The notes under the pieces were generated by a model, which saw nothing but the letters and a program-made list of their open reading frames with translations, was not told the origin of the DNA and made no database searches. 64,000 bases of DNA from assembly GCF_001552135.1 (NCBI RefSeq), contig NZ_BCQP01000028.1, forward strand, positions 62,001-126,000. The letters are read 5' to 3'. This DNA is from Actinomadura chibensis NBRC 106107. GTDB taxonomy: Bacteria; Actinomycetota; Actinomycetes; Streptosporangiales; Streptosporangiaceae. How positions within the stretch are numbered: the stretch's first letter is position 1; each line of letters opens with the position of its first letter. Made by a program: the position numbers and the translations under genes. Shown here piece after piece: positions 6,746 through 53,208 of the stretch.

Positions 6746-7695
6746 GATCGGGTACCTCCGGTGGTCTCTTCGGATGGGACGAGGGTGAGCACGGCCTTGC
6801 CGCGGATCCGGCGTTCGCGCAGGTCGACGAGGGCGGACGCGGTGTCGGCCCAGTCCGCGACGCGTCCGATCTCCGGATGCAGGCGGCCCTCGGCGGTCAG
6901 CCGGACGAGCGCGGCGAGGTCGTCCCCGAGCCGGGTGTCGGCGTCGAGGTAGTGGAAATGCCGGACGGCCGCCGACTCGGGACCGGCGAAGAAGTCGAAG
7001 AAGTCGAGCGTCACCGGGCTCCGGCTCGCCTGCCCGAACCAGATCAGCGTGCCGCGCCGCGCGAGGCGCGCGAGGGCGAGCGGGAGCGCGACGCCGCCGG
7101 TCGACTCCAGGACGACGTCGAACGTCCCGTCCGCGTCGGCCACGTCGTGGACGATCTCCGCCGCGCCCAGCCGGACGAGTCCCCGCGCCCGCCCGGCGTC
7201 GCGGGTCACGGCCGTGACGCGTGCCCCGGCGGCGGCGGCGAGTTCGGTCACGTAGTGCCCGACCCCGCCGGACGCGCCGGTGAGCAGCACGCGCCGGCCG
7301 AGCACGGGACCGGCGGCGCGCAGCAGGCGCAGCGCGGTGAGCCCGGCCAGCGGGAGCGCCGCGCCCCGGACGGCGGGCACCGCGTCCGGCAGCACCGCGA
7401 GCGCGTCGGCGGGGACCGCCGCGAACTCGGCCCAGCCGCCCCACATCGGATGCCCCACGACACGCGCGCCCACGGCGGGGCCGGTGCCGTCGGCGGCGGC
7501 GCGGACCACGCGTCCCGCGACGTCCTTGCCGGGACGGTCGCCCGGCCGCGGCCGCTCCAGCTTGAACGTCTCGCCCCGGTTGATCGAGAACGCCTCGACC
7601 TTCACCAGCGCCTCGCCGTCCCCCGGTTCGGGGTCGGCGACCTCAGCGAGCGTGACCGGTTCGTCCGGGTCCCCGGTCGGGACGAGCGCCTTCAT
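6742..7695 (-). CDS. zinc-independent MDR (quinone reductase-like) NADPH oxidoreductase
   Basis: This 317-residue protein belongs to the medium-chain dehydrogenase/reductase superfamily. It has an N-terminal GroES-like domain and a Rossmann domain with LLTGASGGVGHYVTELA near residue 145. The structural and catalytic zinc ligands of true alcohol dehydrogenases are missing, which fits the quinone oxidoreductase branch. Two ATGs lie 6 bp apart (7701 and 7695); I prefer 7695 because it sits eight bases after GGAGG. It is divergent from a LysR gene with a palindrome between them and is coupled to the SnoaL-like gene downstream. Reduction of a quinone or enone is the likely role, by family. Confidence 0.85.
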   Translation of the reverse strand: MKALVPTGDPDEPVTLAEVADPEPGDGEALVKVEAFSINRGETFKLERPRPGDRPGKDVAGRVVRAAADGTGPAVGARVVGHPMWGGWAEFAAVPADALAVLPDAVPAVRGAALPLAGLTALRLLRAAGPVLGRRVLLTGASGGVGHYVTELAAAAGARVTAVTRDAGRARGLVRLGAAEIVHDVADADGTFDVVLESTGGVALPLALARLARRGTLIWFGQASRSPVTLDFFDFFAGPESAAVRHFHYLDADTRLGDDLAALVRLTAEGRLHPEIGRVADWADTASALVDLRERRIRGKAVLTLVPSEETTGGTRS

Positions 7696-47082: not shown

Positions 47083-47730
47083 CAGGTTAGGTTCCGCGGC
47101 TGACCTTCCGTTGGTGTTTTCGGTCCCGGCGGCCTGTTGGTGGAGCTGTGCAGCGCTCTCGCGGTCACCGGCCCCGTTTCGGCGTTCTGCCAGGGCGTAA
47201 GGGTCCCCGGCGGCGCTGGCCCGCTGATGGCAGTGCACGGCGTGGCGGTAGCGGCCTCTGATCTCTGCCTGGCGTCTGAGGACAGTGAACTCGTCGGGAG
47301 TGTGGGCGTGACGGACGGCTGCGTCCCAGAAGGAGGCCGGGGGACAGTCGAGGGTGCGTTCGGTGCGGGCGTGTTGTTCGAGGTAGTCGGCCGGCCGGTG
47401 CAGCGGGTGGGCACCGGGAGGGGGCCGGTGTCGGATCAAGGGACCGGGCAACCGCCGGTGCGGCACCGTGAGCTCATCCAGCGCGTCGGCGAACCAGGCG
47501 GTGCCGCCGATGCGGGCGTTCGTTGTCGTCGAGGTAGCCGGGCGCGGCGTCGCGCAGCAACCGCTCGGGCAGGAAAAGACTGTGGCCCAGACGGCGGGCG
47601 TCCATCGCCGCCCACAGCACCGCCCGCGCGGCCGGGCTGGCCTGTTCGTAGCGGCGTAGCAGTTCGGGTGCGCCGGCAGCGAGGCGATGGCCGGCCACAC
47701 CGGCGCGATCGCTGGTGGCACGCACACCGT
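47083..47730 (-). pseudogene. fragment of an NTPase/TPR-type protein, copy 1 (frameshifted)
   Basis: Two frames together read PELLRRYEQASPAARAVLW, then ARRLGHSLFLPERLL and DAAPGYLDDN. After a frameshift near 47515 they continue DALDELTVPHRRLPGP, ADYLEQHARTER, ASFWDAAVRHAHTPDEF and TPR/Sel1-like repeats (GRYRHAVHCHQRASAAGDPYA). The same landmarks occur at 51898-53208. This is the C-terminal part of a large multi-domain protein; the N-terminal NTPase part is absent. Confidence 0.75.
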
Positions 47731-48220: not shown

Positions 48221-48595
48221 TCACGGCCCGAATCGATTGGTCTGCTGTCCGTGGTCACCGACCTGGACGCCCTGCGCGCCGTCCGCAGTGACGTTGTACT
48301 TGGCCGCACGCCCCGCGGCGAGCAAGTCGAGAACCCTTTTAGCGGCCTCAATCAGCTCGGCATCGTTTCCCGCGTCACTATCCAACAGCGCCTCCGCCAG
48401 CAGGACTCTCTGGGCGGCCTGGTCGTATTCATGCCGAGCGACGACGAGTTCGGCGGCGTTGTTCCCCGCAACCCGCGCCAAGGTCAACTGCTTCAGTCGG
48501 GTATAGGCGTCTCTGACGGCCGCAGCCGTCGTGTCGCTGAGGCCTGCTGCGGCGCCCGCTCCGAGCGCCGATACGATCGCCGTTATCGCGTCCAT
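48221..48595 (-). CDS. small cytosolic protein with RHIM-like C-terminus; third gene of the VWA operon
   Basis: This 124-residue protein has an Ala-rich N-terminal helix (MDAITAIVSALGAGAAAGL), a helical middle (about 25-100) and the C-terminal tail GVQVGDHGQQTNRF (109-122). V-Q-V-G is the same tetrad as the core of mammalian RHIMs such as RIPK3, and the tail resembles bacterial amyloid signalling sequences. A sister motif lies in the cytosolic loop of the first operon protein (GILIGDHGHQENFF), so the two probably bind each other, by inference. The ATG at 48595 follows GAGGTG and lies ten bases after the previous stop. Alternative: an oligomerisation tail without amyloid behaviour. Confidence 0.75.
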   Translation of the reverse strand: MDAITAIVSALGAGAAAGLSDTTAAAVRDAYTRLKQLTLARVAGNNAAELVVARHEYDQAAQRVLLAEALLDSDAGNDAELIEAAKRVLDLLAAGRAAKYNVTADGAQGVQVGDHGQQTNRFGP

Positions 48596-48605
48596 GGTCA
48601 CCTCG

Positions 48606-49760
48606 TTACTGCGTTCGTGTTGCCTGCCAGGTGAGGGTGATCGGGTTTTCTTCGGTTCCCCCAACCTTCGAGACGGTGAACTTCTTGACAATCCCGTCCT
48701 CAACCAGCGTCGGCTTTATCTGCACGCCGTGGGCGATACCTTGGGCGTACCATCGATACGAGCCGTCCGGCATGAGTTTGAGGGGAAGGTCTTCATAAGG
48801 CGAATATTCGCCGCCGTGTGCGACCACCGAGGTGTCCCAGTGCAGGATCAGTCCGCACTGGCTGCCGGTGGCACATTTTTCCTGTCTTATCTCGGCCGAC
48901 TTGCGGTTCTTTCGCTCTTCTTCGTAGATCCAGGACCAGTTGGTGTCCGGAACATTTCCTGCGAGTGTGCCATCACTCAGCGTGTAGGAACCGGCGATAT
49001 TCTGCTCGGACGGCGAAGAGGTGATGGACGGGCTCGACTTCGATGGTTTGACGTGCTTGCCCTCCTCCTTGGAGGGGGTGACAGTCAGTTTCTTGAGTGT
49101 CGTGTTGAGTGCCGCCGGTGTGGTGACAAACTGCGGCTTCGGCGCCTTGATGAAATTGGTGAGCTTGATTAAGGGCCGCTGCTCCTGGTGGGGGACCTTG
49201 TAGCCGACGAACCGGAAGTCCAGTTCCACCCCGGACTCCGCCGCATTCTTCCGGACGGCGAGTTGCAACGCGGATTGGTCGGACGTACACGCATCCTTGC
49301 CATTGGAGGTCACCACGATGATCCGGTTCTGCTTGCTGCCTCGGAAGGGGTAGCGTCCGGAGAAATCGTCGACCGCGGCGAGGATGCCGTTTTCGAGTGT
49401 GGCGTTGCCCGAAGGTGTCAGCGTGCGCACGGAACTGCTGATCTTCTGGGCGTGGCCCACGCCGGCGCCCACGACCTGGGACGTGTTGGTCCTGTCGCCG
49501 CAGGAGCCGCCGAACCGACGCAGGGACAGGGAGTCGTGGTCGCCGGAGTTCTGCACCGCCGAGGCGACGGCGTTCGCGATCGCGGTGAACTGCTTGCCGT
49601 CCTTGGTCAGCGACGTGTCAACGAGGAAAGCGGTTCGGTATTCCGGGATCGCGCGCATGATCAGAAAAGCCGCGATGCCGATGGCCAGCGTGAAAGCCAC
49701 CAGGATGATCAGTAGCACGTAGGGCCAACGCCTGCGGTGAGCGGATGGTGCACCGGTCAT
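48606..49760 (-). CDS. membrane-anchored VWA-like protein, second gene of the operon
   Basis: This is a 384-residue protein with a single membrane segment at about 13-36 (basic residues before it, so N-in). An extracellular VWA-like domain follows. FLVDTSLTKD (Asp48, Ser50) resembles the MIDAS D-x-S-x-T, then NSGDHDSLSLRRFGGSC and NRIIVVTSNGKDAC complete the fold. Cys residues in GGSC and DAC also occur in the sister protein and may pair. A Ser/Thr/Pro-rich linker leads to a C-terminal beta-rich domain (about 270-384) with another Cys pair. The role is probably ligand or metal-dependent binding outside the cell. Its ATG overlaps the previous gene's stop. Confidence 0.78.
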   Translation of the reverse strand: MTGAPSAHRRRWPYVLLIILVAFTLAIGIAAFLIMRAIPEYRTAFLVDTSLTKDGKQFTAIANAVASAVQNSGDHDSLSLRRFGGSCGDRTNTSQVVGAGVGHAQKISSSVRTLTPSGNATLENGILAAVDDFSGRYPFRGSKQNRIIVVTSNGKDACTSDQSALQLAVRKNAAESGVELDFRFVGYKVPHQEQRPLIKLTNFIKAPKPQFVTTPAALNTTLKKLTVTPSKEEGKHVKPSKSSPSITSSPSEQNIAGSYTLSDGTLAGNVPDTNWSWIYEEERKNRKSAEIRQEKCATGSQCGLILHWDTSVVAHGGEYSPYEDLPLKLMPDGSYRWYAQGIAHGVQIKPTLVEDGIVKKFTVSKVGGTEENPITLTWQATRTQ

Positions 49761-51193
49761 GGCTTCTTCACCGGACTTACCCGAAGGGAGGCAAGAACCT
49801 GGTTCATACCGTTCACCTCGCTGTTGTAGTCCTCCGCCGCCTGATGGAAGACGGTCAGCCGTGGGTCGGTCGGCGCCCCTGCCTTCGCGTCCTTGAGCAG
49901 AGCCTCGGCCGCTGCGACCACCCGCCGTTGTTTTTCGCGCAGCCGAAGGGCGCGGTCTCGCACGTCGCGAGCAGGGGTGTCTTTCGCTCTGGCGGCTAGG
50001 TCGCCGAATTGCGCGGCCGTATCGTCCACCGACTCTCTTGCCCGCCCAAGCGTGCTTTCGGCGAGATCGAGGTGCCCGTCCACGATCGCCTTCACGGCTG
50101 TGTTCACCTGGGTCACTGTGGTGTTGAGAGTGTTGACGATCGATTGGGCGCTCTTGAGGACCGGTTCGGTGTTGGCATGCCATTCCAGGGTCCGCTGCAG
50201 TTCGTCCGCGTTCTTCGCGTAGGTGGGCCGTGGCGCTCTGGCCGCCGCCGCGATTCTGTCGAGCATCTGACGCTGCCCTGCGGGAACCTGGTAGCCGATC
50301 AGCCGGAACTCCAGGGACAGCCCAGCCGCTCTGATCCGGCTACGGATCTCGTTCTCGACATAGGAGGTATCGCTGTCACAGGCGTCCGCGCCATGCCGGG
50401 TCACGACGATGATCCTGTTCACCTGTCGGGCCTTGCTGGCGAGCGGCTTGGAGAAATCCTCGACCGCCTCCACGATCCCGCGTACCAGTGTCGCCCTGCC
50501 GCCTGCGCGAATCCGAGCCGCCTCGTCGGTGATCTTTTGTCGGTTGCCGGTGGCAAAGCCGGCTAGGCGGACGGTGTTGCCGGACGTGCCGCACTCACCG
50601 CCGAACCTCCGCAAGGACAGCGCATCATGGTCGCCGGAATTTCCGATCGCCTTGCGCAGCGATGTCGTCACCGCGGTGATCCCGGCCGAATCCGCGGTGT
50701 CCGCCCCGTCCACAAGGAACTGGGTTCGATAGTTGGGGGCGAATCTCGGCGAGAACCAGTCGAAGTACAGCCAACCCGCGCCCACGGCCAGCACAGAGGC
50801 GATCAGCGTGACCAGCGAGGCCCACAGCACGGCCGGCACGTCAATGTGAAAAAAGTTCTCCTGGTGCCCATGGTCGCCGATGAGAATTCCGCGGCCATTG
50901 GTGACCTGGACGGTCAGTTGCTTCACATATGGCGGAGAGTCGCGTTGTGCCGGAGCGTCGGCTAAGGACACGCGCCGCCATGCGCGCCGGGCGGCGGCCG
51001 CCCCGTACACCGCGCCACCGAGGCCGGCCACTGCCGTGGTCAATCCGATCATGCTGGCGGACTTGCCGGCTTCGTCAAACCCGACTACGGCGAAAAGGAG
51101 CACCATCCCGCCAAGCGCTGTGGCTGCTGTGAGGCCGCCCCAAGCCACTGCACTGCGCACCATATCCGCATCATTAACGATGCAGGAGATCAT
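49757..51193 (-). CDS. polytopic VWA-like protein with cytosolic RHIM-like motif; first gene of the operon
   Basis: The protein has about 478 residues. TM1 is about 15-38 and TM2 about 46-68. A basic cytosolic loop (RRAWRR) carries the motif GILIGDHGHQENFF at 102-115. TM3 is about 121-147, then an outside VWA-like domain (about 165-330: FLVDGADTADS, NSGDHDALSLRRFGGEC, NRIIVVTRHGADAC). A coiled-coil-like region follows (about 370-460). The first MIDAS aspartate is kept but the serines are not. The second operon gene is a paralogue of the VWA part. The start is uncertain (51193, 51163 or 51271); none has a well-spaced ribosome-binding site. Confidence 0.75.
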   Translation of the reverse strand: MISCIVNDADMVRSAVAWGGLTAATALGGMVLLFAVVGFDEAGKSASMIGLTTAVAGLGGAVYGAAAARRAWRRVSLADAPAQRDSPPYVKQLTVQVTNGRGILIGDHGHQENFFHIDVPAVLWASLVTLIASVLAVGAGWLYFDWFSPRFAPNYRTQFLVDGADTADSAGITAVTTSLRKAIGNSGDHDALSLRRFGGECGTSGNTVRLAGFATGNRQKITDEAARIRAGGRATLVRGIVEAVEDFSKPLASKARQVNRIIVVTRHGADACDSDTSYVENEIRSRIRAAGLSLEFRLIGYQVPAGQRQMLDRIAAAARAPRPTYAKNADELQRTLEWHANTEPVLKSAQSIVNTLNTTVTQVNTAVKAIVDGHLDLAESTLGRARESVDDTAAQFGDLAARAKDTPARDVRDRALRLREKQRRVVAAAEALLKDAKAGAPTDPRLTVFHQAAEDYNSEVNGMNQVLASLRVSPVKKP

Positions 51194-51482: not shown

Positions 51483-51923
51483 GTGGTGTGCATACATACA
51501 GTGATATTCGTGAGTCGTTGCAGTCCCGGCTCAGGGACGGATGGGGAACCAATCGCAGGAGGGCAAGCAGGATGCGCAGGATCATCCTCTGATCAGGCCG
51601 CGCGCGGCGCGCTGGTCACCCTGTTCCCCTGCCACGGTGGCGCGAATCAGCGCTGGTCCCAGGACGGCGGGATGCTCCGAAGCGACCTTCCCGGACACAG
51701 GTGCCTGGACCTGCGGAGTGGGCACGTCTGCAACGGCGGCGCGATCAACCTCTACGACTGCAACGGCGCGCGCGGCCAGCAGTGGACCTTCAACGGGAAC
51801 GCGCTGGTGAACGGGATCGAGAACACCTGCCTCACCATCCTTGTCGGGAACCTCAGGGCCGGGACCGCCGTCGTCACCGTCCAGTGCGAAGGCGCCCTCA
51901 GCCAGCAGTGGGAGCTCGCGTGA
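51483..51923 (+). pseudogene. ricin B-type lectin domain, N-terminally truncated
   Basis: The frame encodes most of a beta-trefoil lectin: CHGGANQRW, HRCLDLRSG, NLYDCNGARGQQW, NTCLTI and ALSQQWELA, with the three Q-x-W motifs expected from three repeats. The first repeat is incomplete and there is no signal peptide or partner domain. A short ATG frame in another phase (51571, MRRIIL then stop) looks like the start of a secretion signal, so a deletion may have cut the gene. It overlaps the end of the next pseudogene. Confidence 0.65.
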
Positions 51924-53208
51924 CGTGGGCTTGGGGCGGGCTTTGGTGGTTAGGTCCAGGGGCTTCGATTTCTCCGGCGGCGGTGAGGCCGAAGCGGCGT
52001 AGTCGATCGGCACCTTCGGTGTCGTCGCCCTGCTCCCAGAGTTGCACCAGGTAGGGCACCGCGTTGGGATTTCCGGCGTCGGCGGCCTGCTGGAACAGGC
52101 GCGCGGCATGGCGGTAACGGCCTCGGTCCCTCGCTCGGTGGCCGAGCACGGCAAGGTCGTGCGCGGTCTGGGCGGGGTGGGCGGCGGCGGTCCAGAAGGA
52201 CGCCGGGGGCTGCGGAGGAAGCGTTCGGTGCGGGCGTGCTGTTCGCGGTAGTCGGCCAGCCGGTACAGCGGGCGGGGCGGGTGCGGCTCGCCTGGGCGCG
52301 CGTGGTGCTCGACCAGTGGACCGGGCAGCCGCCGGTGCCAGGCGGTCAGCTCGTCCAGCGCGGCCGGAAACCGGCCGTCGCCGCCGACCCGGTCCCAGTC
52401 GTGGTCATCCAGGTAGCCGGGGGCGGCCGCCTCAAGGAGCGGTTCGGGCCGAAAGGGGCTGTGGCCCGGGCGGCGGGCGTCCATCGCGGTCCACAGCAGC
52501 GCGCGAGCCGCCGGAGTGGTCTCCTGGTAGCGGCGCAGTAGTTCGGGGGGCGCCAGCCAGTTCCTGGGTGATCCGGCCGCCCGGTGCGCGGGTGCTGGCG
52601 CGGCCTCCAGCCGGGAATCGGTGGCGATGGTCGCGGCGTGGGCGGCGAGTTGCGCGGCGGTGAATCCGGGCGGTGCGATGACGTGCTCCGCCTGGTCGAG
52701 CAGGGTCCGCGCGGCACGGTACGGGTCGGGTTCGTCGGGGTGGCCGTGGGCCTCGGTCAAGGTGCGCCGGAAGTCGGGCCACATCGACCCCAGAACCAGT
52801 ACCGGGCCGCGCTTGGGGGCGGCAAGCAGCGCTTGCAGTTCGGCCGCGACCTGTTCTCCGCCCGTGGGCTGCAGGTGGAACTGGGCCTCGTTCAGCTAGA
52901 TCGCCGTCTGCGAAGCGACCCGTCCGGCGCGGACCGCGTCGGCCAGCGCCGCCGGACGCTCGGGCGTGAGCGGGTGCCAGACTCGCCAGTGCGGCAGTCT
53001 GGCGCGGATCGCCTTCCAGCGCGCGCGTGTCTTGCCCGTCGAGGAGTTCGACCATCACCACCATGCGGCTGTCTTGTGCAGCGCCTGCGACGGCCGCCGC
53101 AAACAACCGCCGGACCCCGGCTGGGGCAGGTACACCGGCAGAACCGGCTCCGGGCTTCGGCCCGGACGCGCCCGCCGTGCCCGTAGCGAAGGCCTGGTGC
53201 GCCTCCAA
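51898..53208 (-). pseudogene. NTPase/TPR-type protein remnant, copy 2 (stop and frameshifts)
   Basis: Across frames the reading order is DSRMVVMVELLDGQD, HWRVWHPLTPERP, an in-frame TAG before LNEAQFHLQPTGGEQ (near 52897), then VLVLGSMWPDFRRT, RNWLAPPELLRRYQ, LWTAMDARRPGHS, APGYLDDHDWDRVGGDG and ADYREQHARTERF. A frameshift near 52180 follows, then TPR-like DRGRYRHAARLFQQAADAGNPNA. The pattern suggests a STAND-type NTPase with a repeat sensor. The P-loop is not in this fragment. It shares its C-terminal half with the fragment at 47083. Confidence 0.75.

What the first reader, a model, noticed from the sequence alone, without database searches (positions are those of the whole stretch)
48221..51193. 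Three-gene operon joining two outside VWA-like domains to a RHIM-like cytosolic motif
The order is polytopic VWA protein, single-pass VWA protein, small cytosolic protein, with a 4-bp overlap at the first junction and ten bases at the second. The first and third proteins share G-V/I-x-V/I-G-D-H-G-Q/H-Q-x-N-x-F. The third has the exact V-Q-V-G tetrad of RHIMs, and in the first the motif sits in the loop predicted to be cytosolic, while its VWA domain is predicted outside. The two VWA domains are paralogues (NSGDHDxLSLRRFGG). This would let an outside binding event nucleate an amyloid-type assembly inside, a design I do not know as a described system. Motifs and layout are seen; signalling is inference.
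Basis: partly seen in the sequence, partly recalled or inferred. Interest (0 to 1): 0.9.

Follow-up and report, generated by a model that had tools for sequence, protein, structure and literature searches.

The report
Membrane sensor with matched amyloid-like tags
A set of bacterial genes seems to put a sensor on the outside of the cell and wire it to a small protein inside through a short sticky tag that both share, a wiring scheme known in bacteria for sensors inside the cell but, as far as I could find, not for sensors that face outwards.

Summary
In detail: three minus-strand genes (g1 51193-49757, g2 49760-48606, g3 48595-48221). g1 and g2 carry paralogous VWA domains; g1's predicted cytosolic loop and g3's tail share a RHIM-like motif.

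In 33 loci (this one, 31 from one scan, one more genome) g1 and g2 are adjacent. In 18 of 33 a small gene beside them ends in a motif, each time of the class in g1's loop: RHIM-like 6, GGDNxGxxSTGD 5, RvYQAGRDqxI 7; none off-class. g2's outer tails form 7 unrelated clusters that do not follow motif class.

g3's helical family elsewhere sits by STAND/NLR genes with the same motif at their N-termini (6 of 14 other places looked at): the layout of the known bacterial NLR-BELL amyloid signalosomes. Here a membrane protein with an external VWA takes the NLR's place. A 2021 review asks whether NLR-independent amyloid signalling exists in bacteria.

Inferred, not shown: topology, amyloid assembly, ligand sensing, g3's action. 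Against: few independent class switches (minimum 4), 15 of 33 loci without a partner (five, all Lentzea, without motif too), no match to Pfam's RHIM model, and the founding BASS paper could not be read.

The parts
49757..51193 (-). g1: membrane protein, 2TM + cytosolic motif loop + TM + external VWA + helical tail
51077..51139 (-). g1 TM1 (residues 19-39)
   Evidence: apolar-segment scan
50999..51061 (-). g1 TM2 (residues 45-65), weak
50849..50890 (-). g1 RHIM-like motif GILIGDHGHQENFF (residues 102-115)
50768..50830 (-). g1 TM3 (residues 122-142)
50153..50737 (-). g1 VWA domain (residues 153-347), predicted outside
49760..50152 (-). g1 C-terminal helical bundle (residues 348-478), predicted outside
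48606..49760 (-). g2: single-pass protein with external VWA and variable tail
49656..49718 (-). g2 TM (residues 15-35)
48609..49001 (-). g2 C-terminal tail (about residues 254-384), in a cluster of its own among 32 tails
48221..48595 (-). g3: small helical BELL-like protein with motif tail
48230..48271 (-). g3 RHIM-like motif GVQVGDHGQQTNRF (residues 109-122)

Best explanation
A membrane-receptor version of the bacterial amyloid signalosome. g1 and g2 form a receptor whose VWA domains and g2's variable tip lie outside the cytoplasmic membrane. Binding of an unknown ligand clusters g1 and brings its cytosolic RHIM-like motifs together; these nucleate a homotypic, probably cross-beta, stack that recruits g3 through the same motif at g3's tail and so switches on g3's helical domain, most likely at the membrane and most likely to harm or arrest the cell. 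Shown by sequence: gene layout, shared motif, class-matched pairs across relatives, kinship of g3 with NLR-paired proteins; shown by model: VWA fold. Inferred: topology, cross-beta assembly, ligand sensing, output.
For: (1) g1 and g2 adjacent in 33 of 33 loci. (2) A motif-tailed partner in 18 of 33, class-matched in 18 of 18; with fixed expressions 17 loci give a partner hit, g1 is classified in 16 of these, 16 of 16 match, no off-class hit. (3) Within classes true pairs are more alike than swapped pairs: combined 0.0006; Q 0.0097, S 0.042, R 0.075. (4) Internal control: g2's outer tails form 7 clusters, of which one mixes R with S and one R with Q. (5) g3's domain without its tail matches small proteins near STAND genes, E 8e-17 to 6e-8; six such places have a STAND protein with the same motif at its N-terminus. 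(6) Partner family W does the same: motif-matched NTPase genes in L171, L172, L174 and, in the window's own genome, L181. (7) VWA fold Z 22.7; exactly two cysteines from the VWA start on in 27 of 27 g1 rows, in invariant columns, and two in 30 of 33 g2 VWA segments, as for an exported disulfide. (8) One-TM g1 versions such as L054 have a K/R-rich N-terminus on the motif's side of the TM.
Against: No fibre, binding or toxicity data. Class switches are few: minimum 4 among the 18 paired loci, 1-3 independent pairs depending on the class tested, so a sign test cannot reach 0.05. The expressions were written after seeing the motifs. Ten of 33 loci have a g1 motif but no partner found (L051 at a contig end; six Lentzea with a partner-like segment seemingly fused into g1; L059, L060, L063), and five Lentzea loci have neither. 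PF12721 RHIM has no hit in the own genome. In 6 of 14 other places with a g3 relative no motif-bearing STAND gene was seen nearby. Motif strands in both AlphaFold models are of low confidence. g3's fold has no PDB match at E<=0.001, so its activity is a guess.
Confidence: 0.6

Rival explanations
1. The shared motif is a homotypic docking element that is not amyloid (for example a small beta-solenoid or beta-hairpin oligomer): g1 and g3 bind through it, but signal by a defined complex rather than a templated fibre.
For: Class-matched pairs need only homotypic binding; AlphaFold gives short strands, no confident stack; no match to Pfam RHIM.
Against: Same motif class at NLR N-termini beside g3's relatives, the setting in which BASS3 was found to form fibres according to PMC7885112 and PMC7889193 (passages); that this motif is BASS3 is not tested.
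Confidence: 0.25
2. The motif serves only to cluster or hold the receptor; g3 is a negative regulator or scaffold that occupies g1's motif, and the output lies elsewhere.
For: g3 has no known catalytic or pore domain; g2 and g1 have large external domains; in Lentzea a partner-like segment seems fused to g1 or lost.
Against: g3's family is the one beside NLR genes, where the published reading is effector; partners are of several unrelated kinds, as expected of effectors more than of one regulator.
Confidence: 0.1
3. The motif likeness is chance or common actinobacterial low-complexity sequence and the genes are merely neighbours.
For: Motifs are short, and I wrote the expressions after seeing them.
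Against: 3 hits in 1,102 control ORF tails, one of them g3; 17 hits in 33 loci with none off-class.
Confidence: 0.03

Closest known systems
Bacterial NLR-BELL amyloid signalosomes with BASS motifs (Dyrka et al. 2020, not held; known here from passages of PMC7889193 and PMC8086366)
   Same: Neighbouring genes for a receptor and a small helical protein share a short motif, at the small protein's C-terminus; g3's domain is homologous to small proteins near NLR genes.
   Different: The receptor is a membrane protein with an external VWA; its motif sits between TM helices (or before a single TM), not at the N-terminus of a STAND NTPase; no NLR in the locus.
Insect PGRP-LC / IMD with cryptic RHIM (passages of PMC9531809)
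   Same: Receptor with a RHIM-like motif that forms amyloid together with a cytosolic partner (membrane topology of PGRP-LC recalled).
   Different: Eukaryotic; PGRP instead of VWA ectodomain; partner and downstream pathway unrelated; no homology tested.
MoxR-vWA ternary conflict systems (PMC7159879, passages)
   Same: vWA proteins in conflict systems of multicellular bacteria, with matching modules that link sensor and effector.
   Different: They have a MoxR ATPase; none among 10 flanking proteins scanned. 'RHIM' and 'amyloid' do not occur in that paper's main text.
Fungal HET-S/HELLP-NLR amyloid signalling (PMC7885112, passages)
   Same: A homotypic amyloid motif passes the signal from receptor to a helical effector.
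   Different: Receptors are cytosolic NLRs, not membrane VWA proteins.

Membership tests
NLR-BELL amyloid signalosome (BASS) | Small helical protein with the motif at its C-terminus | tested here: met
   g3: helices within 3-98, motif 109-122 of 124
NLR-BELL amyloid signalosome (BASS) | Helical domain homologous to proteins near NLR genes (stand-in for the published BELL profile, which was not available) | tested here: met
   tailless phmmer E 8e-17 to 6e-8 to L108, L118, L111, L116, L119; L109's called ORF was too short to be tested this way
NLR-BELL amyloid signalosome (BASS) | Adjacent NLR/STAND gene with the motif at its N-terminus | tested here: not met
   the motif-bearing receptor gene here is a membrane VWA protein
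NLR-BELL amyloid signalosome (BASS) | Match to the published BASS3 profile | not testable with these tools
   paper not held; the likeness is by eye and recall
NLR-BELL amyloid signalosome (BASS) | Motif forms self-seeding amyloid | not testable with these tools
   needs experiment
RHIM (Pfam PF12721) | Match to the curated model | tested here: not met
   no match at E<=1 in the own genome, which holds the window
RHIM (Pfam PF12721) | I/V-Q-V/I-G tetrad (consensus as in PMC9531809 passages) | tested here: inconclusive
   V-Q-V-G in g3, I-L-I-G in g1
VWA domain | VWA fold | tested here: met
   g1 model to 4fx5: Z 22.7, rmsd 2.1, 175 aligned, model 153-345; g2 homologous
VWA domain | MIDAS metal site (DxSxS, T, D; recalled) | tested here: inconclusive
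   first D and T235 invariant in 27 of 27 g1 rows; position 164 is mostly A, also T or S; window g2 has DTS
MoxR-vWA ternary system | MoxR ATPase in the locus | tested here: inconclusive
   none in 10 flanking proteins scanned, but not every ORF of the window was scanned

The most novel reading that the evidence does not exclude
Bacterial amyloid signalling is a plug-in system: one pool of motif-tailed effectors is served both by cytosolic STAND/NLR receptors and by outside-facing transmembrane VWA receptors with swappable tips, so that filamentous actinobacteria carry an inside-and-outside surveillance network wired by matched cross-beta tags.
Probability: 0.4. Interest if true: 0.93.

Novelty: new variant of a known kind. 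Interest (0 to 1): 0.8.

Why it matters
A 2021 review of the field (PMC7889193, section 10, passage read) lists as a key question whether fungi and bacteria have signalling amyloids in pathways not dependent on NLRs. This locus and its relatives are a concrete, testable candidate: the NLR is replaced by a receptor that looks outwards. It would extend amyloid signalling in bacteria from guarding the cytoplasm to sensing the surroundings and give a bacterial parallel to insect PGRP-LC. The class-matched pairs also offer ready-made specificity swaps for experiments.

Tried and rejected
Profile libraries gave nothing above cut-off for the three proteins (Pfam, NCBIfam, PADLOC) nor for six small proteins of related loci. 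PDB by sequence: no hit for g1 at E<=0.1, only hits of E 0.27-0.61 for g3. Fold search of g3: 39 matches at E<=10, none at E<=0.001; kinship with HeLo or MLKL bundles was neither shown nor excluded. A wider sample (order 345 genomes, class 394) gave 11 and 2 genomes with g1; their loci looked like ones already in hand and were not fetched again. The idea that one motif is conserved in g1 was dropped, since relatives carry other classes. A strong phylogenetic claim of correlated change was dropped as underpowered.

Literature: ten searches of one open-access library. I saw the listings (for several only the top 8-20 of many papers, e.g. 10 of 1,996) and passages of PMC7889193, PMC7885112, PMC8086366, PMC12261475, PMC7159879, PMC8195603, PMC12881547 and PMC9531809; none was read whole. 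None of what I saw joins VWA or a bacterial membrane receptor with a RHIM-like or BASS motif. Dyrka et al. 2020 could not be read, so this absence is weak.
Full report
What is there. On the minus strand g1 (51193-49757, 478 aa), g2 (49760-48606, 384 aa) and g3 (48595-48221, 124 aa) form a tight operon with a 4-base ATGA overlap and a 10-base gap. The window lies in a 9.4 Mb genome (G000) whose nearest rows in the g1 tree are from Actinomadura. g1 and g2 share a VWA-like domain (40% identity, E 6.7e-44). The g1 loop has GILIGDHGHQENFF and the g3 tail GVQVGDHGQQTNRF.

Fold and topology. AlphaFold2 on a 27-row alignment gave g1 a mean pLDDT of 80.0, between 79 and 98 in ten-residue blocks over residues 151-470; the first 110 or so residues are of low confidence. 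The model matches VWA structures: 4fx5, a VWA protein of Catenulispora, with Z 22.7, rmsd 2.1 over 175 residues, 15% identity; Foldseek's best is 6fpy, E 1.3e-8. My apolar-segment scan gives g1 three TM helices, the second weak, with the motif between the second and third, and g2 one. In one-TM g1 relatives such as L054 the motif lies on the K/R-rich N-terminal side of the TM, which by the positive-inside rule puts it in the cytosol and the VWA outside. All 27 g1 rows hold exactly two cysteines from the VWA start on, in invariant columns, and 30 of 33 g2 VWA segments hold two, which fits an exported disulfide. This is prediction, not proof. g3 is modelled as five helices (3-98) and two short strands (109-114, 117-122), the strands of low confidence.

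Relatives. One scan of genome contigs with a seven-row g1 alignment gave 31 loci in Actinomadura, Streptomyces, Lentzea, Actinokineospora, Crossiella, Nonomuraea, Microbispora and Saccharothrix. With the window and L037 (genome G164) there are 33 loci; the other g1-bearing stretches that I fetched (L036, L038, L041, L043, L046, L107) show the same genes as loci of that scan and were dropped before counting. All 33 have g1 and g2 next to each other. The system is rare: 11 of 345 genomes of the order, 2 of 394 sampled from the class. The exact trio g1-g2-BELL occurs in 4 of 33 (window, L037, L052 = A. madurae, L057 = A. rayongensis).

The motif changes but stays paired. I label g1 loops as R, RHIM-like (14 loci); S, GGDNxGxxSTGD (5); Q, RvYQAGRDqxI (8); other (L060); and none (five Lentzea) (L057 assigned by eye). 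A small gene with a motif tail was found in 18 of 33: R in window, L037, L052, L057, L066, L071; S in L053-L056 and L058; Q in L062, L064, L068, L070, L074, L079, L081. All 18 match their g1. Because I had partly found partners by their likeness to g1, one search repeated the search with fixed expressions for all three classes over all ORFs of 40-230 aa within 4.5 kb on both strands: 17 loci gave one hit each and there was no off-class hit; in 16 of the 17 g1 was classified too and all 16 agreed (L057's g1 misses the expression; L055's partner ORF exceeds the length limit). The same expressions hit 3 of 1,102 ORF tails in the window and 17 other fetched stretches, one of the three being g3. 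The expressions were written after the motifs were seen.

Within a class, true pairs are more alike than swapped pairs (combined 0.0006 over 10,000 shuffles; Q 0.0097, S 0.042, R 0.075), without correction for shared ancestry. The g1 tree, built without the motif region, needs 7 changes of label over 33 rows; a supported clade of nine (100/99) holds both R and S, and S needs two changes even on supported branches; 13 of 30 inner branches are weak. Among the 18 paired loci the minimum is 4 class changes, and 7 changes of my partner-kind labels; only 1-3 independent pairs exist, depending on the class tested, so no significance can be claimed.

Partners are of several kinds, judged by eye: BELL-like (window, L037, L052, L057), two TM helices with a motif tail (L053-L056, L062, L068, L079, L081), W-type helical (L064, L070, L074) and others (L058, L066, L071). 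The 2TM unit at the N-terminus of the window's g1 looks like the free 2TM partners, and the N-terminal segment of several Lentzea g1 proteins looks like the free 63-aa partner of L066; both by eye, suggesting gene fusion.

The outer tip is modular. g2's VWA forms one similarity cluster over 33 loci, while the C-terminal parts of 32 (L071's reading frame gives no tail) fall into 7 single-linkage clusters at E<1e-3. One cluster mixes R with S and one R with Q. So another part of the operon does not follow motif class, while the partner does.

Link to the known system. g3 relatives were found in 18 of 298 family genomes, 20 places. Four are VWA loci (window, G265, G150, G164). Fifteen stretches were fetched, one of them A. 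madurae again. Of the other 14, six have the motif at the N-terminus of a nearby STAND protein: NB-ARC in L108, L111 and L118, nSTAND1 in L109 and L116, NACHT in L119; in five it is the neighbouring gene, in L111 it lies two genes away. In six (L110, L113, L114, L115, L120, L121) no such gene was seen among the nearest three; in L112 and L117 my gene caller did not find the small gene. Two places (G232, G043) were not fetched. The helical domain without its tail is homologous. This is the receptor-effector layout that PMC7889193 (passages) describes for BASS motifs and BELL domains. The W-type partner was found in 29 of 150 genomes; of 12 stretches fetched it was called in 9, and in L171, L172, L174 and L181 an adjacent or nearby NTPase protein has a matching motif near its N-terminus: NB-ARC above cut-off in L172 and L181, AAA_16 just below cut-off in L171 and L174. 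L181 is in the window's own genome, with another motif (VQGQGVQTNTF and MQGQGVQNNLF). So one genome holds both the NLR type and the membrane type.

How it most likely works. g1 and g2 sense something outside, g1 clusters, its motifs stack, and g3 is recruited and switched on. The amyloid step rests on analogy with BASS3 and RHIM (PMC7885112 passages mention BASS3 fibres), the output on analogy with BELL and HeLo. I put the receptor-partner wiring at about 0.8, the cross-beta step at about 0.6 and a cell-death or arrest output at about 0.4.

Against it. Motif and partner are both missing in five Lentzea loci, and the partner was not found in ten more; the Pfam RHIM model does not match; the g1 tetrad lacks the Q; no structure match for g3; six of 14 other g3 relatives show no motif-bearing receptor nearby.

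Novelty. The parts are of a known kind; the receptor type is new to what I saw in ten searches. The key paper, Dyrka et al. 2020, could not be read, so a mention there cannot be excluded.

Noticed in passing
47207-47677 and 52073-52557: Two degraded, frameshifted copies of one gene in the same orientation, 71.6% identical over 489 aligned columns, flank the operon at about 4.87 kb spacing. GC is 0.64-0.65 over 48-52 kb, lower than most of the window (but 56-58 kb is lower still), so arrival of the operon between duplicated copies is possible.
   Followed up: partly
L181 (window's own genome, G000:C53:57000-69000): A W-type small protein and an adjacent NB-ARC-TPR protein share the motif QGQGVQxNxF: an NLR-type pair in the same genome as the VWA-type system.
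   Followed up: partly
L035, L039, L040, L042, L044, L045: g2-like single-pass VWA genes with no g1 beside them; the one in L035 matches the window's g2 over its whole length (58%), tail included.
   Followed up: partly
L114 5833-6291 and L115 6002-6460: BELL-like proteins with two different motifs in tandem at the tail, VQIGDGNTQTNYF then NVQAGRDVYVAG (L114; L115 similar).
   Followed up: no
L177 3727-6042: A W-type helical domain fused to NB-ARC and TPR in one protein, with no motif seen between them.
   Followed up: no
51483-51923 (+): Ricin-type beta-trefoil lectin gene divergent from the operon (Pfam E 1.6e-19).
   Followed up: no
L060, g1 starting near 6887: Actinokineospora g1 carries a further motif, ENIIQAGVVKGGLF, unlike R, S and Q; no partner found nearby.
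   Followed up: partly
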